From Rahnella victoriana (GTDB lineage: Bacteria; Pseudomonadota; Gammaproteobacteria; Enterobacterales; Enterobacteriaceae), in NCBI RefSeq assembly GCF_004330295.1, contig NZ_SJOJ01000006.1, forward strand, positions 62,001-126,000: a stretch of 64,000 nucleotides of DNA, read 5' to 3'. Positions 11,717-28,690 of this stretch are shown here, in pieces. The notes beneath the pieces were generated by a model. It made no database searches, was not told the origin of the DNA, and saw only the letters and a list, made by a program, of their open reading frames with translations. Within the stretch, counting starts at the first letter, position 1. Every line of letters begins with the position of its first letter. Position numbers and translations under genes: made by a program.

Positions 11717-13384
11717 TTACTGGCCGCTGGACTTGACCAGGCCGCGGTAATCCAGCGGCGCCACGCCGGCGTCGATGCGCACTTTCGTCGCGATGCCGTC
11801 GGTGTTGAAGCCTTCCTGCTGGTCGATGTACGGCAGCTCGACCCCGTTCAGGTAAGCCACCTCGATGGTGTCCATACCCTGTGCAGCGGCCAGGTACCAG
11901 GACTTGGCACTGTTGTCGTCCAGACGCGGTTCACCGATCACCGTTGCAAAGTTCTGGATCGGGTTGATGATACCGGCGTTAACGTCGGCGCCTTTCACGC
12001 TGGCAGATTTAATGGTCTGGTTTGCCACGGTTTCGAGGGCGGTAGGCACCAGCAGGAACGCCGGGCGGATATTCAGGGTGCGGCTGGTGGTTGGCTCTTT
12101 CTGCACGCGCATCAGCTGGCGGCCCGCATCCAGATTCGTGACATCAATGGCACCGGTTGCCAGGTTTTTATGATCGCTGCTGAACAACGCCTTGCCGTCT
12201 GACAATTTCGGGTTGCTGGTCAGCACGGCATACACCAGATCGCCGATCGTGGCTTTCGCGGCGCGGCCCATTTTCATCGGCACGTCGGTCAGTTGGTTCA
12301 GATCGTCATTGATGATGGCCTGACGGGTAATGGAGAAAATTTCACCGTAAGTGGCCAGCGCAATGGTCTCGCTGTTATCGGTCGTCGTGACGTATTTGTA
12401 CTCTGCCCCTTCGCGTACCTTACGCAGCGACGGGAAGCCTCCCAGCCCGACGCGGTGAGCCGTTTTAAAGTCGGAGAGTTGCCCTTTCTTCGTCCAAGCT
12501 TCAAAGGTCTCCTGAGACTCTTCCCAGCCCTGCAGCAGAGATTTGTTCGCCACATCCAGCAGAATATTGCCGAAATCGGAGGTGGTGTGCGTCATCGCTA
12601 ATCCCACCATCTGCATCGGATTGTAAGCGGCAACGCCGACCCCGCGCTCGGTCAGCGACATTCGTGCGTATTCACGCAGGGTCATGCCGTTATACACGTT
12701 GTCATTCTGGCGGTCTTCATAGCCCGCGCGCGCCATCAGCGCCTGGCGGATCCCGTCGCCGGTGAAATTCCCGTTGCTGGCATGAATGTGCGCGTTATTG
12801 CCGTTTTTATTGGACGGACTGGCGTCTTTGCCCAGCATGACCAGCAGCTTGTCCTTGGCCTGCTCGACCGTGCAGTCGATGTCTTCGATGCACGTCGCCT
12901 GCAATTCCTGATGGCGGCCGCCGAACATCGCGAACAGGTCTTTGATCCCCGTTACGCGCTGTTTCTGCGCCGCAATCACCTGATTACGAATGGTATTTTC
13001 ATCCAGTGCGGCGGGGGCAGGAACAACCGGTGCAGCGGGCGGATTCTGCGGCACTGGCGGGTTCTGGGTAGTCGCTTTCGGCTTAGTGATCATGTTTTTC
13101 AGTGCGTTAGGCATAGCGTCGAATTCCTCGATACGTTTTGAATTAATGCGGGCCATTGCCTGCACCGCGGTAGAGATCTGGTCGGCAAAACCGTGCTCAA
13201 GGCATTCATGAGCGGTCATCCACGTTTCCTCACCCAACATCAGGGCGAGTTCGTCGGAGGTTTTACCGGTTTTTTTGGCATACGAAGGGATCAGCACGGC
13301 CTCGACCTTATCCAGCAGGTCGGCGTAGTCGCGCATGTCGTTGGCGTCGCCGCCGGTGATCCCCCAGGGTTTGTGGATCATCAT
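11717..13384 (-). pseudogene. Prophage protease-capsid fusion, C-terminal part (interrupted)
   Basis: This holds 551 residues after the split point: the end of a ClpP-like protease (from the active-site His, HKPWGITGG) through a linker rich in Pro/Ala to an HK97-like major capsid protein ending APLDYRGLVKSSGQ. The first 125 residues are at 24547-24920; joined they give a 676-residue gene. The satellite lies between them. The frame continues about 29 codons into satellite DNA, and ATG codons at the junction could allow a truncated product without the catalytic Ser. Intact function requires satellite excision. Compare the intact satellite version at 15567-17513. Confidence 0.92.
13374..13384. 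repeat. attL core of satellite
   Basis: TGGATCATCAT on the plus strand, identical to 24547-24557. On the gene strand it reads ATGATGATCCA, encoding M-M-I-(H) of the protease motif. Bases on either side differ between the copies, so the core is 11 bp. Confidence 0.88.
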
Positions 13385-13454
13385 GCAATACCTTGAAAAC
13401 AGGCTATTGAAGTTAAAGGATATTTTTAAGCATGACTCCGGCAAAAAAACAAAC

Positions 13455-13475
13455 TGCAATACACTTTGCAATACA
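13455..13475. promoter_or_regulatory. Probable integrase arm-type repeats near attL
   Basis: Two direct copies of TGCAATACA spaced by 12 bp start to start. The same tandem arrangement, differing at one spacer base, lies at 24395-24415 near the other end; a further TGCAATACC touches attL at 13384. Direct repeats at both ends of an element with a tyrosine recombinase are typical arm-binding sites. Confidence 0.65.
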
Positions 13476-13626: not shown

Positions 13627-13986
13627 ATGAAACATAATGTCCGTGCCCGAGTTGCTTCAATAGTTGGAGCACATAAATTACAAAAGAAAATTACTAGTGT
13701 ATTTGACTATACAACTTCGAAGTACGTGAGTCTGGATACTAAATTTGAAAGAGGAGTAGTTAATGGATTTGATTATACAACCTCATCTCATTTTTCTGGT
13801 TCCAATTCAGGAACACTAAATTTTTTTAACTACGACTCAAACAGTTATGTAGACATGAAAGAATCGGGCAGTAAATACTCTGGTTTTGATTATGGTTCAT
13901 CTAGTTATTTCGACGTCACTATATCAGGAAAGAGCGTTACCATATTTGATTATGAGTCAAGCAGTTATTATAACTTTTCTGTATGA
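13627..13986 (+). CDS. FDY-repeat protein, satellite cargo
   Basis: 119 residues, AT-rich gene on the plus strand, alone at the attL end, preceded by GAGGG and followed by a terminator. After a basic N-terminus (about 20 residues) it consists of about five repeats of about 20 residues, each starting [VGFI]F[DN]Y followed by a [TS]xS[YH]-type turn: VFDYTTSKYV, GFDYTTSSHF, FFNYDSNSYV, GFDYGSSSYF, IFDYESSSYY. Such short Phe/Tyr/Ser repeats suggest a small beta-solenoid or stacked-strand fold. I do not recognise the family. Position and composition suggest cargo rather than a core satellite gene. Confidence 0.8.
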   Translation: MKHNVRARVASIVGAHKLQKKITSVFDYTTSKYVSLDTKFERGVVNGFDYTTSSHFSGSNSGTLNFFNYDSNSYVDMKESGSKYSGFDYGSSSYFDVTISGKSVTIFDYESSSYYNFSV

Positions 13987-14110: not shown

Positions 14111-14461
14111 TCAGTTAATAGCGCCCGTTGCTTTTGAGTAAGTCAGCCTATTGGCTGGTAATACCTTTTTCATGTGCGCCGCCCAAGCGTCAAAAATGGC
14201 TTCTGATGTCCCGGGATACGCGATGAGAAACGACATCAGCACACTATCTGTAATCCGGTCTTGCATATCCCAATCAACGATAAACTGACGGAATAGCGTA
14301 TAGGCTTTTGCGGGGTCTTTGTTTTCCCAGGTCTCAACAACTACGTCGAAAGCAGGTACCACGTAAGTGATAAACACCGGCAACGATTCGAAATTGGTTG
14401 GGATATTCACCTCAAGGGTGAACTGATCACCCTCGGGCCATATGCGTTGCGTTGAATTCAT
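14111..14461 (-). CDS. Unknown protein coupled to satellite tail protein I
   Basis: 116 residues, not recognised. It has an N-terminal hydrophilic beta-rich part and a C-terminal helical part (LFRQFIVDWDM; AYPGTSEAIFDAWAAHMKKV). ATG at 14461 overlaps the stop of the upstream tail protein I gene (ATGA), so the two are translationally coupled and probably work together. In helper tail operons the gene after I is J, which this does not resemble. A tail-modifying or helper-interference role is possible but only inferred. Confidence 0.75.
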   Translation of the reverse strand: MNSTQRIWPEGDQFTLEVNIPTNFESLPVFITYVVPAFDVVVETWENKDPAKAYTLFRQFIVDWDMQDRITDSVLMSFLIAYPGTSEAIFDAWAAHMKKVLPANRLTYSKATGAIN

Positions 14462-15066
14462 TGCTGATTTTCCACATAGATACCGGCTGAGATAATCGCT
14501 CCACCGATTCGGCGCTTCCCATAAAGCAGCGGCACAGGATAGCCCTGAGCAGCGGTATTCGTTACGCCGCCGAAAGCATAGGAAGCCTGATTATCTGCAT
14601 CCTGTTTGCTGGAGAGACCAGCGGTTTGTGGTGACAGCATTTGAATTACTCCACCAGCCATCAAGGCAGCGCCTGCTTGCATAGCATATGGCCCCCATGT
14701 AGCACCGCCCCATGCCTGACCGATAGTCGCACCAAGCACGCCGACAACAACCAAAACGGCACCGAGGATTGTCTGCAGCACACCAGCCCTTTTGCTACCG
14801 ATTACCACAGGAACAATTTTTATTACTTCCCCTGTGACGGGATAATCTAAGTCGTCTTTCCCAATATTCTTTTTGCCGCAGAATACCGCGTAAGTGATCC
14901 CGTGGCGCTGGCTCGATAACATGTACTGATGAAAGCCCTTGATGGTTACCGATAACGCTCGGGATGCTTCATGTTTTGTCCTGATCAGACGATGATGCTT
15001 TTTACCGTATATTTTACCCAACTGGCCAAAGAGCTGAATCTCGGTCATAACTTCTGAATTGCTCAT
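14458..15066 (-). CDS. Satellite tail assembly protein I
   Basis: A 202-residue lambda gpI family protein, clearly homologous to the prophage I at 3157-3795. It shares the N-terminal ubiquitin-like region, the hydrophobic Gly/Ala middle, and a C-terminus with YPVPLLYGKRRIGGAIISAG. The rest is well diverged, so this is not a recent duplication. It is the only recognisable tail gene in the satellite. It could replace helper gpI in the tail tip, altering tails or blocking helper particles (inference). Confidence 0.92.
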   Translation of the reverse strand: MSNSEVMTEIQLFGQLGKIYGKKHHRLIRTKHEASRALSVTIKGFHQYMLSSQRHGITYAVFCGKKNIGKDDLDYPVTGEVIKIVPVVIGSKRAGVLQTILGAVLVVVGVLGATIGQAWGGATWGPYAMQAGAALMAGGVIQMLSPQTAGLSSKQDADNQASYAFGGVTNTAAQGYPVPLLYGKRRIGGAIISAGIYVENQQ

Positions 15067-15189: not shown

Positions 15190-15414
15190 TCACCAAAAAC
15201 GGCTATTAATTACCCTTCTCGCGACAATTGGCAGCGGGTAAATCGGGTGGGTTTTCCGCAATCTGGCAGGCTTAATATTATGTTTCTTAATAACTTTCGC
15301 TACGGTAGCCCGGTCAATCTCCAAAAACCGGGAAATTTCGCTGATGCTGCATACAGGGACACCATTCATCACCTCAAGTGCAACCTCATTTTCATTAAGA
15401 ACGCGCAATCTCAT
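15190..15414 (-). CDS. Nu1-like DNA-binding domain protein next to satellite cos
   Basis: 74 residues. A winged-HTH-like stretch (SISEISRFLEIDRATVAKVI, then KKHNIKPARL and YPLPIVARRV) resembles the N-terminal domain of the helper's Nu1-family small terminase (LNINQLAGITGVHRQTVAAR). The dimerisation and gpA-binding parts are absent. It starts about 60 bp downstream of the satellite cos site, just as nu1 follows cos in the helper. It may bind cosB and redirect helper terminase to satellite DNA. The function is inferred from fold and position. Confidence 0.75.
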   Translation of the reverse strand: MRLRVLNENEVALEVMNGVPVCSISEISRFLEIDRATVAKVIKKHNIKPARLRKTHPIYPLPIVARRVINSRFW

Positions 15415-15444: not shown

Positions 15445-15545
15445 GTTGATGATGATGATGACGATCGAAATACGAAAACTAGCCGTTTTCCGCGAGCGCG
15501 CCGCCCCGTGGCAGGCACTCCCGTCGGGAGTACCTTTCGTTTTGA
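15445..15545 (-). other. Satellite cos site (packaging site)
   Basis: This region closely matches the helper cos region at 29240-29345: a 24-bp block (15473-15496) is identical to 29274-29297, CCGCCCCGTGGCA and CGGGAGTACCTTTC are shared, and both have GATGATGATGATGA on the same flank. Read on the minus strand it contains GGGCGGCGCGCT followed by CGCGG, aligning with lambda cosN (GGGCGGCGACCT then CGCGG). The helper has GGGCGGCGGACT, so the predicted sticky ends differ. It marks cos-type packaging by helper terminase. Confidence 0.87.
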
Positions 15546-15566: not shown

Positions 15567-17513
15567 TCACGCTTGCCCGGTCGATTTGACCAGCCCGCGA
15601 TAATCCAGCGCGGCAACGCCTGCATCGATGCGCACCTTCCATGCAACGCCATCAACCGTGAAGCCCTGTTGCTCTTCGAGGTAAGGCGTATCCATGCCAT
15701 CCAGATAAGCCACCTCGATGGTGTCGCTGCCCTTGGCTGATGCCACATACCATTGCTGCGCGTTCTTCTTATCCAGTCGTGGCTCAACAATGACCTGCCC
15801 CATATTCTGCACTGTGTTGGCTACCCCGGCGTTCTGATTGAATACCGGATTGGTATCGCTGCCCACGGTCTGTGTGCCGATCTGGAACGGTGAGGATGTT
15901 GATTGCACAGTCCGCATGGCTGCACCTTCCAGCGCGGCAGGGACAATGATGTAAGCCGGGGTCACGTTCAGCGGGTTGCCGTCTGCATCTTCCTGCAGGC
16001 GCATGGCCTTACGCGCCTCTGTCAGGCCGTCCATGTCCATGCCCTTAGCAATCAGGTTGTGGTGGTCAGCGTGGAACAGCGCCTTACTGTCGGTGTATTT
16101 AGGATTATCGGTCAGCACTGCATAGACCAGGTTGCCGACTGTGCGTGACGCGGCGCGGCCCATCAGTTGCGGGATGGTCGTCAGCTGTGACAGATCATCA
16201 TTGATAATGGCCTGGCGCGTGATGGAGAAGATATTGCCGTAGGTGGCCAGCGCGATTGGCACACCGTGGTCGCTGGTGGTCACATACTTGTACTCGGCAC
16301 CCTCCGGCACCTTGTCCAGCGACGTGAACCCGTTCAGACCAACGCGCTTAGACTCATGAAAGTTGGAGAGTGAACCTGTCTTCGTCCAGCTCTGGAAGGT
16401 TTCGCCGCTGTCCTGCCAGCCCATCAAAACAGATTTCTCAGCGCCACCGGCAAGGATGGAAGAAAAGTCGCTGGTGGTATGGGTGAATGCAAGGTTCACA
16501 ATCTGCATGCGGTTGCCGAACCCCGCAACGCTGATCCCGCGGTCAGTCAGAGAGGCTTTCGCCATGTCAAAGAGCGACATCATGGTGTACGGGTTTCCGC
16601 GCTCTGCCTGGTCATGTCCGAGTCGGGCATAAAGCCCCTGACGGATGCCGTCGCCGGTGACGTTCCCATTACCTGCGTAAATGTGCGCATTGCTACCGGT
16701 TTTATTGGATGGGGTTGCATCTTTGCCCATCAGCACCAGCAGCTTATCTTTGGCCTGTTCAACCGTACAAGATGCATCTTCAATACAGGTTGACTGCAAT
16801 TCCTGATGACGGCCGCCGAACATGGCAAACAGGTCTTTAATGCCGTTGATACGTTGCTGCTCTGGTGCAGCTGGCTGGGTTACTGAACCCTGTGGCGCAG
16901 TGATCATGTTCTTCAGTGCATTTGGCATAGCTTCAAATTCCTCAATTCTTTTTGATTCCAGACGAGCCATAACGTTTACAGCTGGCTCCAGTTCATCGGC
17001 AAATCCCTGTTCAACACATTCACGGCCATTGAGCCAGGTCTCACCCTCGAGCATCTGCGCCAGCTCATCGGCAGATTTTCCCGTTTTATTGGCATAGGCA
17101 GGGATGAGCACGGCCTCAACCTTGTCCAGCAGGTCAGCGTAGTCGCGCATCTCTTTAGCATTCCCGCCTGAGATGCCCCAGGGCTTGTGAATCATGAGCA
17201 TGGCATTTTCAGGCATCACCACTTTGTCGCCGGCCATCGCGATAACTGAAGCCATAGACGCTGCCAGGCCATCGATATGCACGGTCAGATTGGCGGGGTG
17301 TTTTTTCAGAAGGTTGTAAATAGCGATCCCGTCGAACACGTCACCGCCCGGGGAATGAATAAACAGGCTGATTTGTTTTACCTGTCCCAGCGCGGCCAGC
17401 TCGTCGGAGAACTGACGGGCGGTAATACCCCACATGCCGATTTCGTCGTAAATCTTGATTTCAGCAGCGCCAGCCACTTTAGCCTTGATGGAGAACCAGC
17501 TTTTCATAGCCAT
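15567..17513 (-). CDS. Satellite ClpP-like protease / HK97-like major capsid fusion
   Basis: 648 residues, intact. The N-terminal about 200 residues are a ClpP-like protease with HSPGGDVFDG, the nucleophile in GLAASMASV (Ser86) and the active-site His109 in MLMIHKPWG. A Gln/Pro linker follows, then an HK97-fold capsid domain (TSDFSSILAG; EGAEYKYVTTSDHG; IFSITRQAIINDDL) ending AALDYRGLVKSTG. It is homologous throughout to the interrupted prophage gene but diverged. It should form or modify heads used to package satellite DNA. The start overlaps the small gene upstream. Its version of the att core differs at 3 of 11 bases. Confidence 0.95.
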   Translation of the reverse strand: MAMKSWFSIKAKVAGAAEIKIYDEIGMWGITARQFSDELAALGQVKQISLFIHSPGGDVFDGIAIYNLLKKHPANLTVHIDGLAASMASVIAMAGDKVVMPENAMLMIHKPWGISGGNAKEMRDYADLLDKVEAVLIPAYANKTGKSADELAQMLEGETWLNGRECVEQGFADELEPAVNVMARLESKRIEEFEAMPNALKNMITAPQGSVTQPAAPEQQRINGIKDLFAMFGGRHQELQSTCIEDASCTVEQAKDKLLVLMGKDATPSNKTGSNAHIYAGNGNVTGDGIRQGLYARLGHDQAERGNPYTMMSLFDMAKASLTDRGISVAGFGNRMQIVNLAFTHTTSDFSSILAGGAEKSVLMGWQDSGETFQSWTKTGSLSNFHESKRVGLNGFTSLDKVPEGAEYKYVTTSDHGVPIALATYGNIFSITRQAIINDDLSQLTTIPQLMGRAASRTVGNLVYAVLTDNPKYTDSKALFHADHHNLIAKGMDMDGLTEARKAMRLQEDADGNPLNVTPAYIIVPAALEGAAMRTVQSTSSPFQIGTQTVGSDTNPVFNQNAGVANTVQNMGQVIVEPRLDKKNAQQWYVASAKGSDTIEVAYLDGMDTPYLEEQQGFTVDGVAWKVRIDAGVAALDYRGLVKSTGQA

Positions 17514-17683
17514 GCCCCCAGGGAAGCGTTGTACCAGTAATGCACGCTGTTACGGACAATTTGCCCTTTAGTCGGTACCGGCATTTCAGGGTGGTTTTTA
17601 CGGCACCAGTCCTGATAAGCCTCAATCTTGTTCATCGTGTCAGCGTCGATATGCACGGCCTGACCTTTCTTTTTCGTCGGCAT
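17504..17683 (-). CDS. Small basic protein before satellite capsid gene
   Basis: 59 residues: a Lys-rich N-terminus (MPTKKKGQAVHIDADTMNKI), a helix, then GQIVRNSVHYWYNASLG. The pattern of a beta strand (QAVHID) followed by two helices resembles a ribbon-helix-helix DNA-binding protein. Its stop overlaps the start of the capsid fusion (17504-17513), so the two are coupled. It is the first gene after a terminator and may regulate the morphogenetic operon; this is inference. Confidence 0.7.
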   Translation of the reverse strand: MPTKKKGQAVHIDADTMNKIEAYQDWCRKNHPEMPVPTKGQIVRNSVHYWYNASLGAWL

Positions 17684-18454: not shown

Positions 18455-20215
18455 TTATTCTGTACCCCCTGTTGCGGCAGGTAGCCACTCCTCAGCATCC
18501 TCAGCCAGCCGGATGTTTGAGCGCATATTTCCCTTGGTACTTTTCTTTCTAATGTACTCCTTCCCATACTCAGCCATCGCGCCAGCCATATCCGTACCGA
18601 ACCGGGTAAGTGATACCGGCCTGTTAAGCCCGTTACTCTGCATATAGGCCAGATAGGCGTGATACAGATACTTGCGCGGGCTGAACGGAATGATGCTGGC
18701 ATTGCCGATAAACATACCGTCGCACTGTACAGACGCCATCAGGTAACCGCAGAAGTCCACCAGCGAATCGCCCTCACGCTTTATGGCTAATGCCTCCTCT
18801 GATTTCTGCTGCTCAAACAAAAGGCGCTTAGCCTCTGACTGATCAGCAAATCGAGTCAGCAAATGGCGGATTATCACCGGCAATTCAGCCTCTATCTTTT
18901 CGGACAACATCGGATCACGCTCATTCTCTGGCACAACCTGCGAGAAATTGAATATCACCCGCCGCCGCGATATGCCGCCGCTCCGGTCGCTGAATGACAT
19001 AGCGTTGTTATTGACAGCCAAAATCACAGCCGGGATCCGAGTCGAATAAGGGGCTTTGTGTTTCGGGTCAATAGCCACCTTGTCACCGCCGGTTATGGCC
19101 TTAATTCCTGCACCGTCACCGGCATAGCGGGTCATGTCCGGCATGATAATCAATGAAAACCCGACAATCAGCGCCCTTTCTCGCGGCTCTTCCAGTGCCT
19201 TCATGCTGGCTGATACCGTGTTGCCCTTACCGGCCAGCATGGTGCAAATCTCGGCCATGACGCTTTTACCGCTGCCACCCGCGCCAGTCACCTCAAGGAA
19301 CAACTGCCAGTCATAACGGTTTGCCATCACCATATATAGAGCCGCCAGCACTCTATCGGCTTTTCGTTCGTTTCCGGCCGTTGACCAGGTGAGCCACTTC
19401 CAGAACGCTGGCGCATGAGTGGCCAGGCTCTCGCCTTCCTCGGCCTGAATGAACTCTACATCACTGGCAATAAGCAACCAGTCGGCCTGGTTGTGTTCCC
19501 TGAATACGCCTTCCCGGGTATCAAAAACCCCGTTACTGAAACCAATCAGATTGCGGGCGGTAGGTTCCATCAGTGGCAGGCTCAACTTCATGGTGTCTAC
19601 GGCGTTCTTCATGCTCGGCATTGAATACGGAACCCGAGATTCCATGAAGATAGCAGCCATTTCCCGCGCCAGCGCTTTATCAGGAACCGGATCCCAGATA
19701 ACACCGTTGTAGTGATGTACGGTATCCGAGTCACCATTCAGCGCCAGCCGTCCGTCATAATGCGCCAGCAAAACTTCCCCGCGCTGGCTCGGCCCCATCT
19801 GATTAAGCGTCGGCGTCCCACCATCCACAGCGACAAATGGCTCTGGCTTTCTGTCCGATTTCTTGACGACTGGCGCAGGGAACAGGCGGTTGATCCGCGC
19901 ACTGTCACAAAGCAGTGCCTTAACGTCATTTTCTCCAAGATACTTAGCCACCAACTCGGCCCTGGCTTTCTTCTGCTTTTCGGTGTCAGTCAAGATCAAG
20001 CCACTCTCACAGAGCGATTCATAAGTTGCACCAGCACCAGGAACAAGGCTCTTTAACTTCTGAGCCAGTGCGCCGAAGGTGGTAGCTTTGTCGCGGTGAC
20101 GGGCGGCAGCGGCACTGGCTTCTTTCTTGTCGATTGGGTGGCCGTTGATCCATCGATAAACGCAGGAGAACAGCGCATCAGACATGATGTCCGGGTCTAA
20201 AGCAGACATACTCAT
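18455..20215 (-). CDS. Primase-helicase (P4 alpha / D5-like)
   Basis: 586 residues. The middle and C-terminal part is a superfamily-3 helicase with Walker A GAGGSGKSVMAE (about 313-324), a downstream IIMPDMTRY Walker-B-like segment and AVILAVNNNAMSFSDRSGG (sensor/arginine finger region), followed by a C-terminal winged-helix (D5_N/primase family) domain. The N-terminus lacks the zinc-finger primase motifs of full-length P4 alpha and is shorter than P4 alpha (777 residues), so primase activity is less certain. It overlaps the preceding gene (20212) and precedes the iteron origin. Confidence 0.92.
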   Translation of the reverse strand: MSMSALDPDIMSDALFSCVYRWINGHPIDKKEASAAAARHRDKATTFGALAQKLKSLVPGAGATYESLCESGLILTDTEKQKKARAELVAKYLGENDVKALLCDSARINRLFPAPVVKKSDRKPEPFVAVDGGTPTLNQMGPSQRGEVLLAHYDGRLALNGDSDTVHHYNGVIWDPVPDKALAREMAAIFMESRVPYSMPSMKNAVDTMKLSLPLMEPTARNLIGFSNGVFDTREGVFREHNQADWLLIASDVEFIQAEEGESLATHAPAFWKWLTWSTAGNERKADRVLAALYMVMANRYDWQLFLEVTGAGGSGKSVMAEICTMLAGKGNTVSASMKALEEPRERALIVGFSLIIMPDMTRYAGDGAGIKAITGGDKVAIDPKHKAPYSTRIPAVILAVNNNAMSFSDRSGGISRRRVIFNFSQVVPENERDPMLSEKIEAELPVIIRHLLTRFADQSEAKRLLFEQQKSEEALAIKREGDSLVDFCGYLMASVQCDGMFIGNASIIPFSPRKYLYHAYLAYMQSNGLNRPVSLTRFGTDMAGAMAEYGKEYIRKKSTKGNMRSNIRLAEDAEEWLPAATGGTE

Positions 20216-20550
20216 AGCTGTGGCCTCCGTGTCATAGTGAATTTACCGATCAGCGGGTGATACCAGTATTTACTACGGCACTGGCGTTTTGCCCCTTTGA
20301 TGATGATCAGCGCCGCCTCGCGGAATTTAGTTTCATGCACTGCATAGCTGGCGCCATGACGGACAATCAGCACACCGCTGTTTCTTGCCAATTCCTCAGC
20401 CTTCTTGGTGGATATGCCCATCTCAGCCGCCATGGTGGTAAGCGGGGCCATACCTTCTGGGCAGGCATCCTTCCGGGACATTGCCGCAAGCGCCAGCTCA
20501 AGGGCGGCAACACGTTTTTCCAGCTCGTTAAATTTGATTGGGCTGATCAT
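20212..20550 (-). CDS. Unknown protein in satellite replication operon
   Basis: 112 residues. A short coiled coil at the N-terminus (FNELEKRVAALELALAAMSR) is followed by an HTH-like segment (PLTTMAAEMGISTKKAEELA) and a basic C-terminus. It overlaps both neighbours by 4 bp, so it is cotranslated with the primase. The HTH suggests DNA binding, perhaps as a replication accessory factor or regulator (inference). Confidence 0.75.
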   Translation of the reverse strand: MISPIKFNELEKRVAALELALAAMSRKDACPEGMAPLTTMAAEMGISTKKAEELARNSGVLIVRHGASYAVHETKFREAALIIIKGAKRQCRSKYWYHPLIGKFTMTRRPQL

Positions 20551-20852
20551 TTGGTTCCTCCCCGGCGTTTTAATTCGTAATCGGCGTTCTCACGGTTCTG
20601 ATCAAGGGCCTGCATCAATCGTGGCAAGTGCTTCAAAGCGCTACTTAAACCCATCATGTCTCTTCGGCATTCTTCATCTGAATATTCGTCACTATCACAA
20701 GCTTCCATGGACAAGCAGCCCAGTGTGGTAAGTGCGAAAACTATTCCTGATGCAGCGTCGCCACAGTTGTTTTTGTAATCAGTCAGCGCTTCTTGGGAGA
20801 GGTTTTTGAGTAGGTCAGAACTACCCACGACAGCATGGTAGATATCACGCAT
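20547..20852 (-). CDS. Unknown satellite protein
   Basis: 101 residues, acidic, with a Cys-containing middle (TTLGCLSMEACDSDEYSDEE) and a helical C-terminus. No family recognised, although small genes of this kind are common between icd-like and primase genes in P4-like elements. It overlaps the genes on both sides, supporting a tight operon. Confidence 0.7.
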   Translation of the reverse strand: MRDIYHAVVGSSDLLKNLSQEALTDYKNNCGDAASGIVFALTTLGCLSMEACDSDEYSDEECRRDMMGLSSALKHLPRLMQALDQNRENADYELKRRGGTK

Positions 20853-21536: not shown

Positions 21537-22076
21537 TTATTCAGGGTCATGGGTTACGATTGTCTCAAAAGCCTCCATGAATATCTTCTGAAGTTCTGGA
21601 GGCGGCACAGATATAAAAGCACATGCAATTGGTGTAAATGCTTCTATCGCTTTTATCGGATCATCGAGATTAATACCTTTTCTTGCGATAGCTAACACTT
21701 CGTAAATTGCTGAGATATTATTTCTCTCAATTTGCGTACTCAAATCATGGCCAAGTTTGTTTCTTATTTTATTCAATTGAATTATTCCCGGCCTGACAAA
21801 TGATGCACTCCCACCAGCTCTAGGGACAAGTTCAATTTTCTGAGCAAAACGTAACTGTAGATTTTCGAGACCGTCTATTCTGTAATAATCCACCAAGAAT
21901 TTGGTCAAGAAATGCTCCACCACAAGATGACATTTCAGAACTCTACCAATATTATCATGCGGCTGCTCCATTAAATTAATAAAAATACCATTCATTTCGG
22001 AGAAATGTTTCTCGATACTTTCCATGTGCGGTTTCATTACTTCTAAAACCTTATGAACTCCGTCTATATCTTTCAT
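21537..22076 (-). CDS. HEPN-domain protein, second gene of putative defence pair
   Basis: 179 residues, AT-rich. Helices around VEHFLTKFLVDYY and IIQLNKIRNKLGHDL give the HEPN layout, with the R-x4-H motif RNKLGH at residues 105-110 that forms the RNase site in many HEPN toxins. ATG at 22076 overlaps the stop of the upstream Ntn-hydrolase gene (ATGA). HEPN proteins commonly act as abortive-infection RNases controlled by a partner; here the partner would be the protease-like protein. The pairing is unfamiliar to me. Confidence 0.8.
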   Translation of the reverse strand: MKDIDGVHKVLEVMKPHMESIEKHFSEMNGIFINLMEQPHDNIGRVLKCHLVVEHFLTKFLVDYYRIDGLENLQLRFAQKIELVPRAGGSASFVRPGIIQLNKIRNKLGHDLSTQIERNNISAIYEVLAIARKGINLDDPIKAIEAFTPIACAFISVPPPELQKIFMEAFETIVTHDPE

Positions 22077-22903
22077 ATAGATCTCCCTATCATATTAGCC
22101 TCAACAATTACACCAAGAGGAATAACATCATTAATCAACTCGTTAATATCAACGCCAGCACGCATATACCTCACAGACCCATTTTTATTCTCATACATTG
22201 AAAGTAGTGTAATATCATTAGACTGACATTTAGCATACTGTATAGAACCACCAACAGAATTGCATGCAGGATCAGAAATTACTGAAGCCAATATATCGAG
22301 CAATGGATTCTCTTTGTTTATTGCATCTGCCCTAGCGAAATGATTGCCTAATGTGTCTGATGTTTTTAAGAAAGTCGCCCCACTCCCATCAATAATGAAA
22401 CTTTCTTGCTCGAAGCACTTAGTTTTAGAATAAATAACTTGATTTGAGACAGAATCCATCTTGACACTGAGCTTATACATTTCCATCTGTTTAGATAATG
22501 GACAGAAACCAGCAATATAGACAGAACACGCCCCGTCCAACTCCATATAGTACGCTAAAATATCAACTGTAATTTTTTTATACACATTAAATGCAACTTC
22601 AGCAATAACATCCATAGATGCATTATTCGTGTCAGGGAAAAATACCATCTGATTCAAAATCTCTGCAAGACTCTCTTTTATGGTATAGGCACTAACAAAC
22701 CCGCCACAAAAAGAAATAGCTAACTTAACCGTTCCTTTTAATATTTTATTACCGCCCGTTACACTATTCGCCTCGTACAATTCACAATTAAGCCTAGATA
22801 TCTTCAAACAATGATCTAGTATAGTTTTACCATTACTTAAGCGAGAATCTGTAGCCATGTGAATATCATTAGCTCTGTCTTTCCAAAACACACACATAGT
22901 CAT
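22073..22903 (-). CDS. Proteasome-like Ntn hydrolase, first gene of putative defence pair
   Basis: 276 residues from ATG 22903, preferred over GTG 22930 because GGGAG lies 8 bases upstream and it gives a Met-Thr N-terminus. After Met removal the protein would start T-M-C-V-F-W-K, and MATDSRLSNG plus CLKI align with the HslV/proteasome beta pattern: Thr1, Asp18 and Lys33 match the catalytic set. Later segments (GTVKLAISFCGGFVSAYTI; FIIDGSGATFL) fit the four-layer fold. AT-rich, between the AlpA-like gene and the HEPN gene. Substrate unknown. Confidence 0.8.
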   Translation of the reverse strand: MTMCVFWKDRANDIHMATDSRLSNGKTILDHCLKISRLNCELYEANSVTGGNKILKGTVKLAISFCGGFVSAYTIKESLAEILNQMVFFPDTNNASMDVIAEVAFNVYKKITVDILAYYMELDGACSVYIAGFCPLSKQMEMYKLSVKMDSVSNQVIYSKTKCFEQESFIIDGSGATFLKTSDTLGNHFARADAINKENPLLDILASVISDPACNSVGGSIQYAKCQSNDITLLSMYENKNGSVRYMRAGVDINELINDVIPLGVIVEANMIGRSI

Positions 22904-22917
22904 TAACTTACTCCCAA

Positions 22918-23154
22918 TTAATTGTTCCACTTACCTCTTATCCAAGCTTGCACCTCTGAGAGTCGGTAAGCAACTGCTGATGGCCCAATTTTGATGCGCT
23001 TCGGAAATGTTCCTTCCTGTTCCATGCGCCAGCGTGTGGAGTTAGACAGCGTGGTCATAGCCCGGCACTCAGGTTCGCGGATCATTCTGTCAAGCTCAGG
23101 CATGTACTGGAGATCTTCTTTTTTTACGACGGATAACATAGCCATATCAGGCAC
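22918..23154 (-). CDS. AlpA-like excisionase/regulator
   Basis: 78 residues with an AlpA/MerR-type helix-turn-helix. The sequence RDxx-like start is replaced by MIREPECRAMTTLSNSTRWR, followed by EQEGTFPKRIKIGPSAVAYR and LSEVQAWIRGKW, the classic AlpA C-terminus. AlpA proteins activate integrase or act as excision factors in P4-like satellites. It overlaps the integrase stop by 8 bp. An alternative start at Met4 or Met6 is possible. Confidence 0.9.
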   Translation of the reverse strand: MPDMAMLSVVKKEDLQYMPELDRMIREPECRAMTTLSNSTRWRMEQEGTFPKRIKIGPSAVAYRLSEVQAWIRGKWNN

Positions 23155-24382
23155 TCCTTTTCTTAATCACTTTGACTGTATTTTCTTCACCCACCAGCCC
23201 ATCAAGGTAATCAACCCATCGGTCCAGTGCTTCTTGTTTTTGCGGGATGTATTTACTTCGGTTATAAATTCCAGCAACGCCTCTTATTGTGTGTCCAAGC
23301 AGTTGCTCTACTACAAAAAAATCAACTCCCATATCGTTGAGACTTGTTGAAATCGTTCGTCTCAAGTCGTGTAATGACCAGCGTTTCTCATGCTTTAAAG
23401 AAACAAAGTTAGTACACCCCATCACGCTGACTGTTGAATCAGATTTCAATTCGCCGAGTATGTAGTTTCGCCTTTTAGTCTCTTCATGCAGGTTTATGAG
23501 CCACTGACGCATCTTTTGTGGAACAGGACGAACAATCTCCTCACCGTTTTTACTATGCTCCTTAGGCACAGTCCAAAGCCATTTCTCGAAGTCCCATTCA
23601 TCCCATGTGGATAGGCGTGCCTCACTGAGCCTGCAGCCGAAAATAAGACACAAAATACTGATCCTCTTTTTGTAATTCATCACACGGGTTTTCCCTTTGC
23701 CATGAAAGTAAACGCCCCACAGGTCGGCAACGTAACTTTCTTCAAGCAACCGCTCTCTCTTATTCTGATATTTACCAATATCACCAGGACTCAAGTCATC
23801 CAGCACATTGCATCGCACATACTGGCGTACCCGGCAGTATTTGAAGATCTGCTTTAACTCAATCAGCATCGCGGCAGACTGAACCGGTGCAATTTTCTTC
23901 ACGCGATCAAAGCATTTTATCCAGTCTGAGAGAGTACATTTCTCGACCGGAAAGCCCCCTATGTAGGGAAATATGTATCTCTCATAACGGCGATAAAGCC
24001 GCATCGTCTCCTTGCGTTTCTCCCTGGCATAGTTATCAAACCAGTAATCGATAGCGTTCTTAACGGTGACAGGTGTGAATAGGCTCTTTTTGGTGAGTTT
24101 GTTCTCTATCCGTGGATCAAGTCCTTGGGATAGCCATGCCCGGCACTCGTCCCTTTTCTCCCTAGCCTGTTTGAGTGTCATATCTGGATATCTGCCTAAC
24201 GTCATCCAGACCGGGGCGCTTTGTCGGCCAGAATGCCTAAAGAAAAACACAAAGCTTACGGATCCATTCGTGCTGACTCTGACAGACAGGCCTCGGCCAT
24301 CAGCCACCATCTTTTGACGCTGCTGCGGTTTACCCTCTAAGGATTTTAGCGCCTTGTCGCTTAACTTGTTCTCGCCAGCCAT
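23147..24382 (-). CDS. int: P4-type tyrosine integrase of satellite
   Basis: 411 residues. An N-terminal DUF4102-type arm-binding domain (LSDKALKSLEGK; VSFVFFFRHSGRQSAPVWMT; LGRYPDMTLKQAREKRDE) precedes a core-binding domain and the catalytic domain. Catalytic residues are visible: Arg in FGCRLSEAR, His-x-x-Arg in LHDLRRT, His in LLGHTIRG and Tyr in AGIYNRSK. It lies 165 bp from attR with arm-type repeats between. Its target is the M-M-I-H coding stretch of a phage protease gene. Confidence 0.97.
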   Translation of the reverse strand: MAGENKLSDKALKSLEGKPQQRQKMVADGRGLSVRVSTNGSVSFVFFFRHSGRQSAPVWMTLGRYPDMTLKQAREKRDECRAWLSQGLDPRIENKLTKKSLFTPVTVKNAIDYWFDNYAREKRKETMRLYRRYERYIFPYIGGFPVEKCTLSDWIKCFDRVKKIAPVQSAAMLIELKQIFKYCRVRQYVRCNVLDDLSPGDIGKYQNKRERLLEESYVADLWGVYFHGKGKTRVMNYKKRISILCLIFGCRLSEARLSTWDEWDFEKWLWTVPKEHSKNGEEIVRPVPQKMRQWLINLHEETKRRNYILGELKSDSTVSVMGCTNFVSLKHEKRWSLHDLRRTISTSLNDMGVDFFVVEQLLGHTIRGVAGIYNRSKYIPQKQEALDRWVDYLDGLVGEENTVKVIKKRSA

Positions 24383-24394
24383 AACACCTCATTC

Positions 24395-24415
24395 TGCAAT
24401 ACACATTGCAATACA
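24395..24415. promoter_or_regulatory. Probable integrase arm-type repeats near attR
   Basis: Tandem TGCAATACA copies spaced 12 bp start to start, in the int-attR gap; same arrangement as at 13455-13475. Confidence 0.65.
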
Positions 24416-24546
24416 CATTCATCCGCAACGCCCAGAAAACGTAGAAAAGCAATGCAAACAACATTCTTTCCTTCTTCATAATTAACAAAGAGTTAATGAA
24501 TAAAGCTGGTTCTCCATGCGTACCCATGAGGTAGTGTGATGGATAA

Positions 24547-24557
24547 TGGATCATCAT
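24547..24557. repeat. attR core of satellite
   Basis: TGGATCATCAT, identical to 13374-13384; separates satellite from the N-terminal half of the prophage protease gene. Confidence 0.88.
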
Positions 24558-24920
24558 CATGGCGTTTTCAGGCATGATTATAGGGTTACCCACCATGGCA
24601 ATCACCGAGGCCATTGAGGCGGCAAGACCGTCGATATACACGGTTTTGCTCGCCGTATGGCTGTTAAGCAGGTTGTAAATGGCAATGCCGTCAAAGACGT
24701 CGCCGCCCGGCGAGTGGATATGCAGATTGATATGATCCAGATCGCCCAACGCTTTCATGCTGCTGGCGAACTGGCGGGCAGTGACGCCCCAGTAACCAAT
24801 CTCGTCATAAATATAAATATCGGCGGTCTTGTCACCGCTGGCCTTCATGCGGAACCAGCTTTTATCCCCCGCAGAGGCTTTGGGTGACGCCCCCAGTTTA
24901 TTTCTTGGATTCTTTCGCAC
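24547..24920 (-). pseudogene. Prophage protease-capsid fusion, N-terminal part (interrupted)
   Basis: The first 125 residues of the prophage ClpP-like protease domain: SWFRMKASGDKTADIYIYDE, HSPGGDVFDGIAIYNLL and the catalytic Ser in IDGLAASMASV, ending at M-M-I-H where the satellite begins. In the present state the frame runs on about 70 codons into satellite DNA and stops at 24330. The remaining 551 residues lie at 11717-13384. The start overlaps the end of the portal gene by about 23 bp, as in intact head operons of this type. Confidence 0.93.
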
Positions 24921-26376
24921 TGGCTTCCCCTTTATCGTTTGCCGGGTCCGTGTCGAAGACCAGACCTAACGTTTTGTTTTCATCAACTTCCGCTTTGCGG
25001 CGGCGTTTAACATCACCAGGATTCGCACCGCGCGCCCTGACCCAATCCCCTTCCGTCGCAGCGCCACCGCGCAACAGCACGCGCCAGGAATTAGCCTCTT
25101 TCATCGGGTCAATCCATGGCATTACCGGCCCGCTGTAAACCGCATTAAACAACGTCGCCATATCCACATCAGGCGGGACATTGATCACGCCCGCCGTGAT
25201 CGCCATTTGCAACCAGCTGCGGTACATCGGGCGGGTCACTGCTGCGATAAAGGCATCCTGAAGAATTCCGTAGCCTTCAAAAGACTCAACCAGCTCCTGC
25301 CGCTGTGAGCTGTATGTACCGTTGTAGTTACGCGAGATGCTGGAAAAGCTGCTTCGGCTGCCGGCGGCCACCGCCCTGAGTTGCCCGTTTCGGAACGACT
25401 CAAGGTTAGGATTGGGACGATCCGATTTAATCATCCCGATTTCTTCGCCGGGTTCGAGGTCATTAAAGAGCATGCCGGGCTCAATATTGAGCTCGCGGGA
25501 GTCCTTACCATTACCATCCGCGCTTTCGTAAGATTGCCCGTCTCCTTTTTTGACGTACATACCCAGCGCGGCGGCAATACGTGCGGCCGTCAGTTCAGAA
25601 TCTTCATACTCTTTCAGTGCGCTCAGGCGGATCAGAATGCCGGACAGCAGGCTGTTTCCCCGGACCTGATGAAGCCGGCGCATGAATTTCAGGTGCATCA
25701 TGCCGTCTGCGGCGATTTCTTTGGTGTTACCGAGCGCCACACCTGAAGTCACCAGATTTTTATAGACGACATACTTTGTCGGGCGACCCCAGTCGTTGAG
25801 ATAGATCCCCTGACAAACACCCTTCCCGGTATCGTTCATTTCTAAAGGAATGTAGTCCGGCTCCAGCGCCTCAACCCAGAATGGAATTTTCGCCGTCGGG
25901 GTAAGTCCGGGGGCTGAACCCCTTACCATCTGGCCGAAAACCTCTCCGTCGCGCAGCCAGGTTCTTGCCATCAGCCGCTCAAGTACGGGGCGGGTAAACT
26001 GCCCTGTCACATCGGGCGAAACGGACCACTCTGCCCAGGCTGCCCGTATTTGTTTTGAGAGCTCATCGGCCACCAGCCCCGTTTTCAGGATGGGCTGCGG
26101 GTCAACCACAATTCCGCGAGCGCCGACAATGCGCTCTTCGAGTTTATCCAGCAGGCCAATCACCAGATCGTGATTATTGTCCAGCCAGCGTGCCTGCTCC
26201 CTGATCGACCGGCCAGCAAACTGCGTGAGCTGATTTGCGTTGCGGTTTTCCCGCTTCGCCCGGTGCGTACGGGTCGGCAATGCTGCCTCATAGGCATTGA
26301 TAGCCACACGGGACCGCAACCGGGAGGCTTTCCAGCCCGGCGAAAATATGCCAATGGCATCATCAATCAGGCTCAT
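24898..26376 (-). CDS. B: Portal protein B
   Basis: 492 residues from ATG 26376, which overlaps the gpW stop (ATGA); longer starts upstream would run through gpW. Lambda-type portal family: LIDDAIGIFSPGWKASRLRS at the N-terminus, NQLTQFAGRSIREQARWLDN, and the conserved ISRNYNGTYSSQRQELVES. Twelve copies form the DNA entry channel and terminase docking site. The satellite has no portal, so it must use this one or that of another helper. Confidence 0.96.
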   Translation of the reverse strand: MSLIDDAIGIFSPGWKASRLRSRVAINAYEAALPTRTHRAKRENRNANQLTQFAGRSIREQARWLDNNHDLVIGLLDKLEERIVGARGIVVDPQPILKTGLVADELSKQIRAAWAEWSVSPDVTGQFTRPVLERLMARTWLRDGEVFGQMVRGSAPGLTPTAKIPFWVEALEPDYIPLEMNDTGKGVCQGIYLNDWGRPTKYVVYKNLVTSGVALGNTKEIAADGMMHLKFMRRLHQVRGNSLLSGILIRLSALKEYEDSELTAARIAAALGMYVKKGDGQSYESADGNGKDSRELNIEPGMLFNDLEPGEEIGMIKSDRPNPNLESFRNGQLRAVAAGSRSSFSSISRNYNGTYSSQRQELVESFEGYGILQDAFIAAVTRPMYRSWLQMAITAGVINVPPDVDMATLFNAVYSGPVMPWIDPMKEANSWRVLLRGGAATEGDWVRARGANPGDVKRRRKAEVDENKTLGLVFDTDPANDKGEASAKESKK

Positions 26377-26591
26377 CGCGGAAACCTCGCCAGCCGGTAT
26401 TGCGGTCGCCCGCGCTGCGCTGCCAGTAACGTGCTGAGCCGTCGCTCCCATTTCTCGCGACCCTTTTGTATCTCGCTTAAGTTTTCCATCGTCATGGACT
26501 GCCCGTTGAAGGTGATGGATTTCCCCTGCAAGACGGCGCGTTCAGCGGTCATATACTGCTGGATCATGTCTTCAATATCGGCCTGATTCAT
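26373..26591 (-). CDS. W: Head-tail joining protein W
   Basis: A 72-residue gpW family protein: MNQADIEDMIQQYMTAERAV, GKSITFNGQSMTMENLSEIQ and a basic C-terminus. gpW is one of the connector proteins added below the portal. Here it sits between large terminase and portal, exactly as in lambda, with short overlaps on both sides. Confidence 0.94.
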   Translation of the reverse strand: MNQADIEDMIQQYMTAERAVLQGKSITFNGQSMTMENLSEIQKGREKWERRLSTLLAAQRGRPQYRLARFPR

Positions 26592-28690
26592 ACCCAGCCT
26601 CCTGATGTCGATGGCGCCCAGGCAGAAGGTTTATCCTCTGTCTTAGCACGGGTTGTTTTCGGTTTTGGGTGATTACTGCGGGGTTTCGGTGCGGGTGAGT
26701 CAGAAGGTGAAGACGGCGCGGACTGTTCAATGGGTTGTGCCCAATCAGGCGGTTTTTCCCAGTTTATCCGTTCGTACCCGCGCAAAATCACCAGCGCATG
26801 GGCGTAAACCATCAGGTCAAACGCTTCGTTCGCTCCTTTGCCAGGTTTCGTCCATTTGCCGTCAGCACCCCGTTCTTCATAGGTCAGTTCGTCGTAAAAC
26901 CACTCCCCCAGCCAGTCAGGAAAGTGAACGTAGTTAGCCCCCGGCGTATCGCGCTGAAGCGCATTACTGATCCGGTCTTTAAGCATATTGGTTTGCAGAA
27001 GATAGAGGGGCACGTCGCCGCGGGCCTCCGCCCGGCGGTTTGGGCGGTCGGTATTGTCCGGCAGTGACTTGGTGATCAGCTTGCTGCGGGTGGTGCTGTC
27101 GCCTTTGAAGAGATAAACGCGCTTGTGCACCCCATCACGGCGGCATTGACGCCAGAACTCATAGGCATTGCCGGTGACACCGTCTTCACCGCCGGAATCG
27201 ACGGCCATCGCCAGCACGGGCAGAAAAACACCCGGATTGCTGTTGAGTGGCCACTGCTTATCCAGTACGTCTGTTCGCAGTAAATCCCAGTCTTCCAGAT
27301 AGCCAGCCGGGTCAATCGGCAGGCTTTCGCCGTTCGGCCCCGTGCGCATCGACTGTTTAATGTTGTATCGGTCAACGACCCAGCGCTCACCGTGGGCGCC
27401 ATAGCCGATCACCTGCACAACGAACCGCCGGTTGCGTCCGCCCTGTACGTCAACGGTCGCCACCAGAAACCGCACCCCGTCAGGCACGGTGCGCTTGGTC
27501 ACGGTCGAGGCGCGCGCCATCAGGGTTTCGGATTTGCGCTGCTCAACGCTGGACTGAGGGATATAAGGCAGACCCCAGTCAGTATTGATCACCGCTTTAA
27601 GGGTTTCTTCACTGCCGTTCGCCTCGTAGTCCTGCTGAGCGGACAGCAACTTGTAGACCAGCTGCGAAAGCGTTTGGTACGCCGCGGCGGGTCCTTCCAT
27701 CCAGAATGACGCAATGCGCGATCGTCTGGCCGTTCCCGTGACAGTGCCATGACGGTCAATCTGTTCACCGTCGCGCAGCCAGACACCTTTCTGATTAAGT
27801 GCGCGTTTCTGCCCTGCTGTAATTTTTCCCCGGCAATGCGGACACTCTATGAATGCCGCCTCGCTGGCGACCACAGGGTCGGCAATATTCTGATAACCCT
27901 GCACTACGTCTTTCGCGGGCTGGAAGTGTTCGCCGCAGTGCGGACAAGGCCAGTACCAGCGTCGGCGATCGCCACGGTTATATAAAGAAAGAATGCCGGT
28001 GGTCGGCGGCGCCTCATGCAGTGAACTGCGGCGCCATTTGGTATCACGAATATCGCGACCCGGTGAGCTCTCCACCAGCGTCATGCCCGAAGACATAAAT
28101 GTCGTCGTACGTTTTGAGGCCAGCGTAAAAGCGTCCCCCTCACCGTCAATATCTTCGGGGAATCGGTCATAATCCGTCAGTGCAACGCACTTATAATCGG
28201 ACGAGGATATAATATTAATAGAGGGCCAGCCGATTTTGAGGTAGTTCCCTGCCCGGAATGTCCGGTCGTATACGTTGTTATCATTACGGCGTGGGCTCAG
28301 GCGTTTAGCCACTTCAGGGCTGCTGCGAAAGGTCCGGTCAAGGCGCTTTTTGCTGTGCTCACGCGCCTTCTCTTCCGTCATCTGGATAAGCAACATATCC
28401 GAAGGGTCACAGACAACGTTGTAAACAATCCAGCCGTCGATCAGACCGATGGTTTTACCTGTTCGGGACGGACCGACGAAGATCACGGCGTCGTACTCGC
28501 GGGATGCCAGGCAGTTCATGGGGTCGACAACATACGGTGCCAAATTCGGATCCCAGGGAACGGAGTTTCCCGCCCCCATCGGCACGCGCATATATTGGCT
28601 GACCGCATCGGCAACCAGCATGCGCCGCGGTGCGCGAAGAATGCCCGGTACATCTCTCCGGATGCCATGCGCTGAAGCCCGCTTTGCCAT
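26588..28690 (-). CDS. A: Large terminase subunit A
   Basis: A 700-residue lambda gpA family protein (GpA ATPase + nuclease). The Walker-A-like motif is VGPSRTGKTIG at about residues 72-82, with LIQMTEEKAREHSKKRLDRT after it. A zinc-binding-like WPCPHCGEHF...CPHC pair lies at about 245-290, and nuclease-domain residues include VDVQGGRNRRFVVQV and DSGGEDGVTGNAYEFWR. It cuts at cos and drives DNA into the head. It would be needed by the satellite too. Confidence 0.97.
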   Translation of the reverse strand: MAKRASAHGIRRDVPGILRAPRRMLVADAVSQYMRVPMGAGNSVPWDPNLAPYVVDPMNCLASREYDAVIFVGPSRTGKTIGLIDGWIVYNVVCDPSDMLLIQMTEEKAREHSKKRLDRTFRSSPEVAKRLSPRRNDNNVYDRTFRAGNYLKIGWPSINIISSSDYKCVALTDYDRFPEDIDGEGDAFTLASKRTTTFMSSGMTLVESSPGRDIRDTKWRRSSLHEAPPTTGILSLYNRGDRRRWYWPCPHCGEHFQPAKDVVQGYQNIADPVVASEAAFIECPHCRGKITAGQKRALNQKGVWLRDGEQIDRHGTVTGTARRSRIASFWMEGPAAAYQTLSQLVYKLLSAQQDYEANGSEETLKAVINTDWGLPYIPQSSVEQRKSETLMARASTVTKRTVPDGVRFLVATVDVQGGRNRRFVVQVIGYGAHGERWVVDRYNIKQSMRTGPNGESLPIDPAGYLEDWDLLRTDVLDKQWPLNSNPGVFLPVLAMAVDSGGEDGVTGNAYEFWRQCRRDGVHKRVYLFKGDSTTRSKLITKSLPDNTDRPNRRAEARGDVPLYLLQTNMLKDRISNALQRDTPGANYVHFPDWLGEWFYDELTYEERGADGKWTKPGKGANEAFDLMVYAHALVILRGYERINWEKPPDWAQPIEQSAPSSPSDSPAPKPRSNHPKPKTTRAKTEDKPSAWAPSTSGGWV

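What the first reader, a model, noticed from the sequence alone, without database searches (positions are those of the whole stretch)
15567..17513. Satellite encodes a complete protease-capsid fusion, but no portal or large terminase
Capsid-forming PICIs carry most head genes; this element carries only the shell/protease gene plus tail protein I. It could build a separate capsid size, form mixed shells, or complement the gene it has broken. It keeps catalytic Ser86 and His109.
Basis: partly seen in the sequence, partly recalled or inferred. Interest (0 to 1): 0.82.

Follow-up and report, generated by a model that had tools for sequence, protein, structure and literature searches.

The report
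Satellite-only capsid gene with short scaffold
A small virus parasite sitting inside the shell gene of a larger bacterial virus carries its own version of that shell gene, one of a family found in such parasites with the built-in scaffold cut short, which suggests that it makes a smaller shell for itself.

Summary
ORF 15567-17513(-) is a complete, constrained ClpP-like protease/scaffold/capsid fusion with Ser86, His109 and Asp173. It lies in an 11.17-kb satellite inserted at the catalytic-His codons of a lambdoid prophage's own fusion gene. I found no portal or large terminase in the satellite.

The element is a known kind: a helper-embedded PICI at the published site C:CLP_protease:110 (PMC10111431). 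It also has a helper-like cos site right after the fusion, a small ORF overlapping its start and a 74-aa TerS-like HTH protein.

What I did not find described is a satellite-specific capsid lineage. In the protease-capsid linker, 44 of 45 non-identical satellite-context copies have 26-42 residues (one has 53); 120 of 120 phage-context copies have 48-87. Fifteen of 16 dereplicated satellite copies form one clade (support 100) with no phage copy inside. Satellites with different integrases and targets share it. Two TerL-embedded satellites carry it beside an intact helper fusion, so replacing the broken gene is unlikely to be its role. Scaffold length tracks head size in HK97-like phages, so head-size redirection is the best explanation; packaging as about four-unit concatemers in normal heads is not excluded.

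The parts
15567..17513 (-). satellite-borne ClpP-like protease / scaffold / major capsid fusion, 648 aa
   Evidence: PF00574, PF25209, phrog_133; purifying selection
16992..17498 (-). protease domain, residues 6-174, with Ser86, His109 and Asp173
16779..16991 (-). linker/scaffold stretch, residues 175-245; the shortened part is residues 196-230
   Evidence: satellite 26-42 aa (44 of 45) against phage 48-87 aa (120 of 120)
15582..16553 (-). capsid domain, residues 321-644
   Evidence: PF25209
17504..17683 (-). small ORF (59 aa) overlapping the fusion start; looks like a ribbon-helix-helix protein (my reading of the sequence, no Pfam hit)
   Evidence: phrog_4934, function unknown; Pfam none; relative adjacent in 41 of 43 satellite loci
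15448..15541 (-). cos-like site, 84% identical over 96 columns to the helper's 29250-29342; core GGGGCGGCG...CGCGG begins at 15507
15190..15414 (-). 74-aa HTH ORF with weak TerS similarity
   Evidence: phrog_141 E 1.3e-5; no BLASTP similarity to the helper's TerS; few replacement changes
14458..15066 (-). lambda gpI-like tail assembly protein, accessory
   Evidence: phrog_32; 40% identical to the helper's gpI
14111..14461 (-). ORF of unknown function downstream of gpI
   Evidence: no Pfam or PHROG hit
18455..20215 (-). D5-type primase/helicase, satellite replication
22918..23154 (-). AlpA, signature of gram-negative PICIs
   Evidence: PF05930
23147..24382 (-). tyrosine integrase of the satellite
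   Evidence: PF13356, PF00589; 86% nt identity to the E. coli elements at the same kind of site
24547..24557 (-). att identity block ATGATGATCCA, integrase side
13374..13384 (-). att identity block ATGATGATCCA, far side; codons of the protease catalytic His
24394..24415 (-). doubled TGTATTGC motif, integrase side
   Evidence: motif described in PMC10111431
13454..13475 (-). doubled TGTATTGC motif, far side
24330..24920 (-). 5' piece of the helper's own fusion gene, running on into satellite sequence
11717..13471 (-). 3' piece of the helper's own fusion gene (helper sequence from about 13384 downwards); long linker
24898..28690 (-). helper portal (24898-26451), gpW-like (26373-26591), TerL (26588-28690)

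Best explanation
The element is a helper-embedded gram-negative PICI, and its fusion gene is a dedicated satellite capsid. After helper induction the satellite leaves the prophage, which makes the helper's gene continuous again. It replicates with its own primase and offers a helper-like cos site to the helper terminase. Its fusion protein is a self-cleaving protease joined to a scaffold about half as long as the phage version and a capsid domain. It assembles, alone or together with the helper capsid protein, around the helper portal into a smaller head that suits the 10-11 kb satellite and not the helper genome; helper tails complete the particle. Shown here: identity, insertion site, cos, gene order, conservation, the satellite-specific lineage and the short linker. 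Inferred: that the short linker changes head size, that helper portal, terminase and tails are used, and any timing.
For: Linker length separates satellite from phage copies: 44 of 45 against 120 of 120; in the 64 copies added after the idea was formed, 28 satellite (28-42 aa) and 36 phage (55-64 aa) do not overlap. The same is seen without an alignment, between two sequence anchors: 37-38 in the 12 satellite copies measured, 53-72 in phage copies. AF2 models give the first scaffold helix as 13 residues in the satellite and 26 in a phage copy (low overall confidence). [quoted passage not shown] Fifteen of 16 dereplicated satellite copies are one clade, support 100, no phage copy inside. Protease and capsid parts are under purifying selection. 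A cos-like core directly follows the fusion in 32 of 41 satellite loci (3 or fewer mismatches) and in 0 of 118 phage loci. Satellites mapped at both ends are 10.1-11.2 kb (4 of 4). Precedent: SaPIbov5 Ccm, a capsid homologue that changes head form (PMC8569155).
Against: No particle, DNA size or structure was measured. In the E. coli PICI EcCICFT073, deleting the capsid gene did not change transfer and packaged DNA was phage-sized (PMC6092414 passages); that gene is another capsid type. Four units (44.7 kb) would fit a helper of about 45 kb (56.36-kb viral contig, minus 11.17 kb; my arithmetic). One satellite-like locus, L216, has a phage-like linker of 53. The association may rest on one acquisition: a single satellite clade including L084 is not rejected (AU p 0.52 and 0.77). 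The capsid half of both AF2 models is unreliable.
Confidence: 0.58

Rival explanations
1. Poison or regulator: the satellite capsid protein co-assembles with the helper's and lowers helper yield, while satellite DNA travels as about four-unit concatemers in normal-size helper heads.
For: EcCICFT073 is packaged as phage-length DNA (PMC6092414 passages; PMC10111431). Four window satellites make 44.7 kb, near a helper of about 45 kb (arithmetic). The satellite and helper proteins are about 62% identical, so contacts are plausible.
Against: In EcCICFT073 deleting the capsid gene did not relieve interference. Strong constraint on both protease and capsid parts suggests a working, self-processing shell protein rather than a mere poison.
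Confidence: 0.24
2. Mixed shell in the manner of SaPIbov5 Ccm: the satellite protein takes only some positions, for example pentamers, and the helper protein fills the rest. This changes head size but needs the helper capsid gene.
For: Ccm forms the pentamers and the helper protein the hexamers (PMC8569155 abstract). Excision makes the helper gene continuous again, so both proteins can be present.
Against: The satellite copy is a full protease-scaffold-capsid protein and could assemble alone. No composition data exist. This overlaps with the best explanation and its odds are partly shared.
Confidence: 0.1
3. Backup copy: the satellite supplies the protein whose gene it interrupts, so that heads can be made before or without excision.
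For: PMC10111431 offers this as a possibility for late genes captured by such satellites. The gene is intact here and the helper's is interrupted.
Against: The same fusion family sits in satellites that interrupt TerL (L131, L218, L238, L268) or lie by a tRNA (L130, L133, L069). In L218 and L268 the helper's own fusion is an intact ORF. The satellite copy differs systematically from phage copies and is not a copy of its helper's gene.
Confidence: 0.06
4. Passive relic of late-gene capture with no present function.
For: Late genes are often captured by such satellites (PMC10111431).
Against: dN/dS 0.03-0.16 over 11 pairs; catalytic residues kept; shared gene order small ORF - fusion - cos. One E. 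coli copy is frameshifted (L219), so decay does occur.
Confidence: 0.02

Closest known systems
Helper-embedded PICIs, site C:CLP_protease:110 (Tommasini et al. 2023, PMC10111431)
   Same: Same insertion site in a ClpP/capsid gene, related integrase (86% nt to the E. coli elements), AlpA, primase, doubled TGTATTGC motif, co-orientation with helper late genes, own capsid gene; the nested E. coli satellites L001, L002, L036 and L037 match the described PICI-in-PICI case at tRNA-Ile2.
   Different: That paper (parts 1-6 of 8 read) treats late genes as captured from helpers. In the parts read it does not describe a satellite-only capsid clade or a shortened scaffold. It argues that divergence at the att site prevents self-integration; here the window copy has 3 of 11 mismatches but four related satellites keep a perfect block in their own gene.
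SaPIbov5 Ccm
   Same: cos-type satellite with a homologue of the helper capsid protein.
   Different: Gram-positive; Ccm is 23% identical to its helper protein (PMC6893505 passage) and the change is prolate to isometric; here the protein carries its own protease and a shortened scaffold.
EcCICFT073 capsid gene c1499 and PmCI172 capsid-like gene (PMC6092414)
   Same: Gram-negative PICIs with one capsid gene; PmCI172 makes small heads.
   Different: c1499 is dispensable for transfer and DNA is phage-sized; neither is described in the passages seen as a protease-capsid fusion.
Capsid-forming PICIs
   Same: Satellite makes its own shell protein.
   Different: They carry portal, terminase and other head genes (recalled; L034, a 16.5-kb induced element with portal, terminase and capsid annotated, is shown); none here.
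HK97/D3-type built-in scaffold (delta domain) of the major capsid protein
   Same: Scaffold fused to the capsid protein and removed by a protease.
   Different: Here the protease is fused as well, and two length classes exist, phage and satellite.

Membership tests
helper-embedded PICI | inserted in a late gene of a lambda-like prophage, co-oriented with it | tested here: met
helper-embedded PICI | integrase of the HE-PICI clade | tested here: met
   full-length hit at 86% nt identity to integrases of E. coli satellites at the same kind of site; by similarity, no tree of integrases was built
helper-embedded PICI | two copies of the doubled TGTATTGC motif, 81 and 132 bp from the att centre | tested here: met
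   copies at 13454-13475 and 24394-24415; near edges lie about 76 and 137 bp from the centre of my 11-bp block, sum 213 = 81+132
helper-embedded PICI | AlpA and primase | tested here: met
helper-embedded PICI | no replacement sequence in attP, target gene stays broken | tested here: met
   two separate pieces of the helper gene
helper-embedded PICI | excision after helper induction | not testable with these tools
   shown for another element, 11capE, in PMC10111431
capsid-forming PICI | own portal and large terminase | tested here: not met
head-size redirecting satellite (Ccm-like mode) | homologue of the helper capsid protein | tested here: met
   about 62% identity to the helper's capsid half
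head-size redirecting satellite (Ccm-like mode) | makes smaller particles | not testable with these tools
   needs microscopy or packaged-DNA sizing
cos-type satellite | helper-like cos site | tested here: met
   84% over 96 columns to the helper's site; core motif; cleavage not tested

The most novel reading that the evidence does not exclude
An old, satellite-specific lineage of self-processing capsid proteins has shortened its built-in scaffold so as to close at a smaller triangulation number. It is passed between satellites with unrelated integrases as a cassette (small regulator, capsid, cos), turning a lambdoid helper's portal, terminase and tail into carriers of a 10-11 kb element.
Probability: 0.45. 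Interest if true: 0.78.

Novelty: new variant of a known kind. Interest (0 to 1): 0.58.

Why it matters
Many gram-negative PICIs carry a capsid gene (21 of 29 reference elements according to PMC10111431), yet deleting one had no effect, so their purpose is open. Here the satellite copies differ from phage copies by one simple trait, scaffold length, that is already tied to head size in HK97-like phages. That makes the question testable with a two-gene expression experiment, and offers natural long/short pairs (for example L218) for studying how shell size is set.

Tried and rejected
Backup-copy reading: rejected as the main role, see rivals. Self-protection by divergence of the att block: partly rejected; the window's own copy has 3 of 11 mismatches, but L067, L068, L069 and L070 keep a perfect block in their own gene. 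An extra capsid loop (residues 520-565) looked at first like a satellite-wide mark, but 10 of 45 satellite copies lack it, so it marks only part of the clade. Convergent shortening in L084: not shown; trees place it apart, but a single satellite clade is not rejected (AU p 0.52; p 0.77). AF2 models: mean pLDDT 55.5 and 51.0, capsid half unusable, so no fold search was run. PADLOC scan of five window satellite ORFs of unknown function, the 20547-20852 ORF and two L001 ORFs: no hits. A paper search for the fusion by name found nothing. TerS-like ORF against the helper's TerS: no BLASTP alignment.

Rows and labels: context labels came from a rule (portal close upstream = phage; primase, RepA, integrase, AlpA or the small ORF upstream and no portal = satellite). 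I set by hand L070 (satellite despite a portal fragment upstream), L105, L118 and L137 (phage), L216 (satellite), L210 (unknown, contig end), the two L218 copies and the broken outer copy of L001. Left out of the 166 rows were 40 entries: identical proteins and interrupted helper-type or outer copies (listed). Trees left out seven remote or partial rows. Satellite copies are redundant: 45 fall to 16 at 93% identity once those rows are left out.

Limits: family, order and class searches covered 392, 394 and 369 genomes; one search kept 80 of 565 matches; one search listed 60 of 175 phage records. L216's satellite status rests on 16 kb without a detected portal.

Full report
Observation. ORF 15567-17513 on the minus strand encodes 648 aa: a ClpP-like protease (residues 6-174) and a capsid domain (321-644), matching phrog_133 at E 2.1e-277. 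The satellite holds no detectable portal, gpW or large terminase. The helper's own fusion is in two pieces, 24330-24920 and 11717-13471.

Where the satellite ends. An 11-bp block, ATGATGATCCA, lies at 24547-24557 and 13374-13384, so the element is 11,173 bp. The block covers the codons of the helper protease's catalytic histidine. Doubled TGTATTGC motifs lie inside each end. The same site is used by the satellites in L135 (10,076 bp), L067 (10,973 bp) and L001 (10,317 bp).

What it is. PMC10111431 describes helper-embedded PICIs, their doubled att motif, and a site named C:CLP_protease:110, including 24 cases in which the host of the satellite is another PICI in tRNA-Ile2 (parts 1-6 of 8 of the text read). 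The E. coli loci L001, L002, L036 and L037 show that nested case. AlpA, the primase and the integrase (86% nt to those E. coli elements) agree. The window's element is therefore a new member of a published kind. Full-length hits to its integrase occur in 4 of 5,426 E. coli genomes; a related satellite fusion occurs in 13 of 5,426.

The packaging cassette. A small ORF overlaps the start of the fusion (17504-17683; phrog_4934, function unknown); by eye it is a ribbon-helix-helix protein, which no call confirms. A relative sits next to the fusion in 41 of 43 satellite loci with context; the two without are L084 and L216, though L084 has a small ORF of its own there. Directly after the fusion stop lies a cos-like site, 84% identical over 96 columns to the helper's. 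Its core occurs there with 3 or fewer mismatches in 32 of 41 satellite loci that have enough sequence and in 0 of 118 phage loci; the other 9 satellite loci have 6-10 mismatches. After cos comes a 74-aa HTH ORF with weak TerS similarity and few replacement changes (dN/dS about 0.04-0.07 in four comparisons; a fifth had no replacement change). A TerS-like gene is found downstream in 30 of 43 satellite loci and gpI in 19 of 43.

Satellite and phage copies differ. I collected fusion proteins from whole genomes, phage records, viral contigs and E. coli genomes, and labelled each by its neighbours, not by its sequence. In the stretch aligned to window residues 196-230, the first set had 26-34 residues in 14 of 14 satellite copies and 49-75 in 64 of 64 phage copies. 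Adding 21 copies from the order and class searches gave one exception, L216, a satellite-like locus from another order with 53. A later scan added 64 non-identical copies: 28 satellite copies with 28-42 and 36 phage copies with 55-64. In all, 44 of 45 satellite copies have 26-42 and one has 53, against 48-87 in 120 of 120 phage copies. Over the longer stretch 174-321 the ranges overlap (142-169 against 159-207). Between two sequence anchors, without an alignment, the 12 satellite copies measured gave 37-38 and phage copies 53-72. An added loop at 520-565 is present in 35 of 45 satellite copies and no phage copy.

History. With the linker and loop columns removed, 15 of 16 dereplicated satellite copies form one clade with support 100 and a long stem (0.46), with no phage copy inside; L084 falls elsewhere on a long branch, but one satellite clade including it is not rejected (AU p 0.77; p 0.52 in an earlier set). 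So the trait may have arisen once, and the many copies are not independent tests. The clade is shared by satellites with different integrases and targets: fusions about 97-99% identical to the window's sit in L135 (ClpP site), L131 (in TerL), L132 (another integrase) and L130 and L133 (tRNA-Ile2-type integrase, beside a CAU tRNA). In L218 and L268 the satellite is in TerL and the helper's own fusion is an intact ORF. Replacing the broken gene is thus not the general reason for carrying the fusion.

Mechanism. Both halves are under purifying selection (11 pairs). In the AF2 models the first scaffold helix is 13 residues (218-230) in the satellite copy and 26 (237-262) in a Providencia phage copy; pLDDT there is about 65-81, while the capsid half is not usable. 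[quoted passage not shown] PMC8569155 (abstract and passages) shows a satellite capsid homologue that changes head form. I infer that the satellite protein closes a smaller shell. By simple volume scaling from a T=7 head of about 45 kb, a 10-11 kb element would fit T=3 better than T=4; this is arithmetic, not evidence.

Against. In EcCICFT073 the capsid gene could be deleted without effect on transfer and DNA was phage-sized (PMC6092414 passages). Four units of the window satellite are 44.7 kb, close to the helper's about 45 kb, so concatemers in normal heads remain possible. No experiment exists on this protein.

Novelty. The element and its site are published. I found no description of the satellite-only capsid clade or the shortened scaffold in the texts seen or in seven paper searches of an open-access library; subscription papers and preprints were not searched. 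Other papers seen: PMC12409344 (abstract), PMC11773190 (passages), PMC6893505 (passages).

Noticed in passing
window 36560-38557 (-): C5 DNA methyltransferase of the helper prophage is 665 aa with its matched parts at both ends (phrog_116 spans 1-663 over about 295 profile positions), so a stretch of roughly 340 aa seems inserted in the middle.
   Followed up: partly
window 45175-46302 (+): DndB-like protein (PF14072) near the end of the prophage region.
   Followed up: no
window 22073-22930 and 21537-22076 (-): Two ORFs between alpA and the replication genes (phrog_16034, phrog_5483, both of unknown function); no PADLOC hit. They sit where such satellites vary.
   Followed up: partly
window 13627-13986 (+): 119-aa ORF on the opposite strand near the far end of the satellite, with a repeated FDYxSSSY-like pattern; no Pfam, PHROG or PADLOC hit.
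   Followed up: partly
L002 12517-14318; L036 14429-15642: Insertion sequences (IS100 and an IS3-family element) sit in or right beside the integrase gene of the inner E. coli satellite.
   Followed up: no
L219 9001-10910: E. coli MS1679 carries a satellite fusion annotated as frameshifted; decay of the gene does occur.
   Followed up: no
L216 4176-14877: Satellite-like element from another order: integrase, primase, fusion and a neck protein, with no portal or terminase detected in 16 kb.
   Followed up: partly
L119, L120, L101, L102, L136 and relatives: Ten phage copies, several from Providencia, have Asn and one has Thr at the third protease triad position (173).
   Followed up: no
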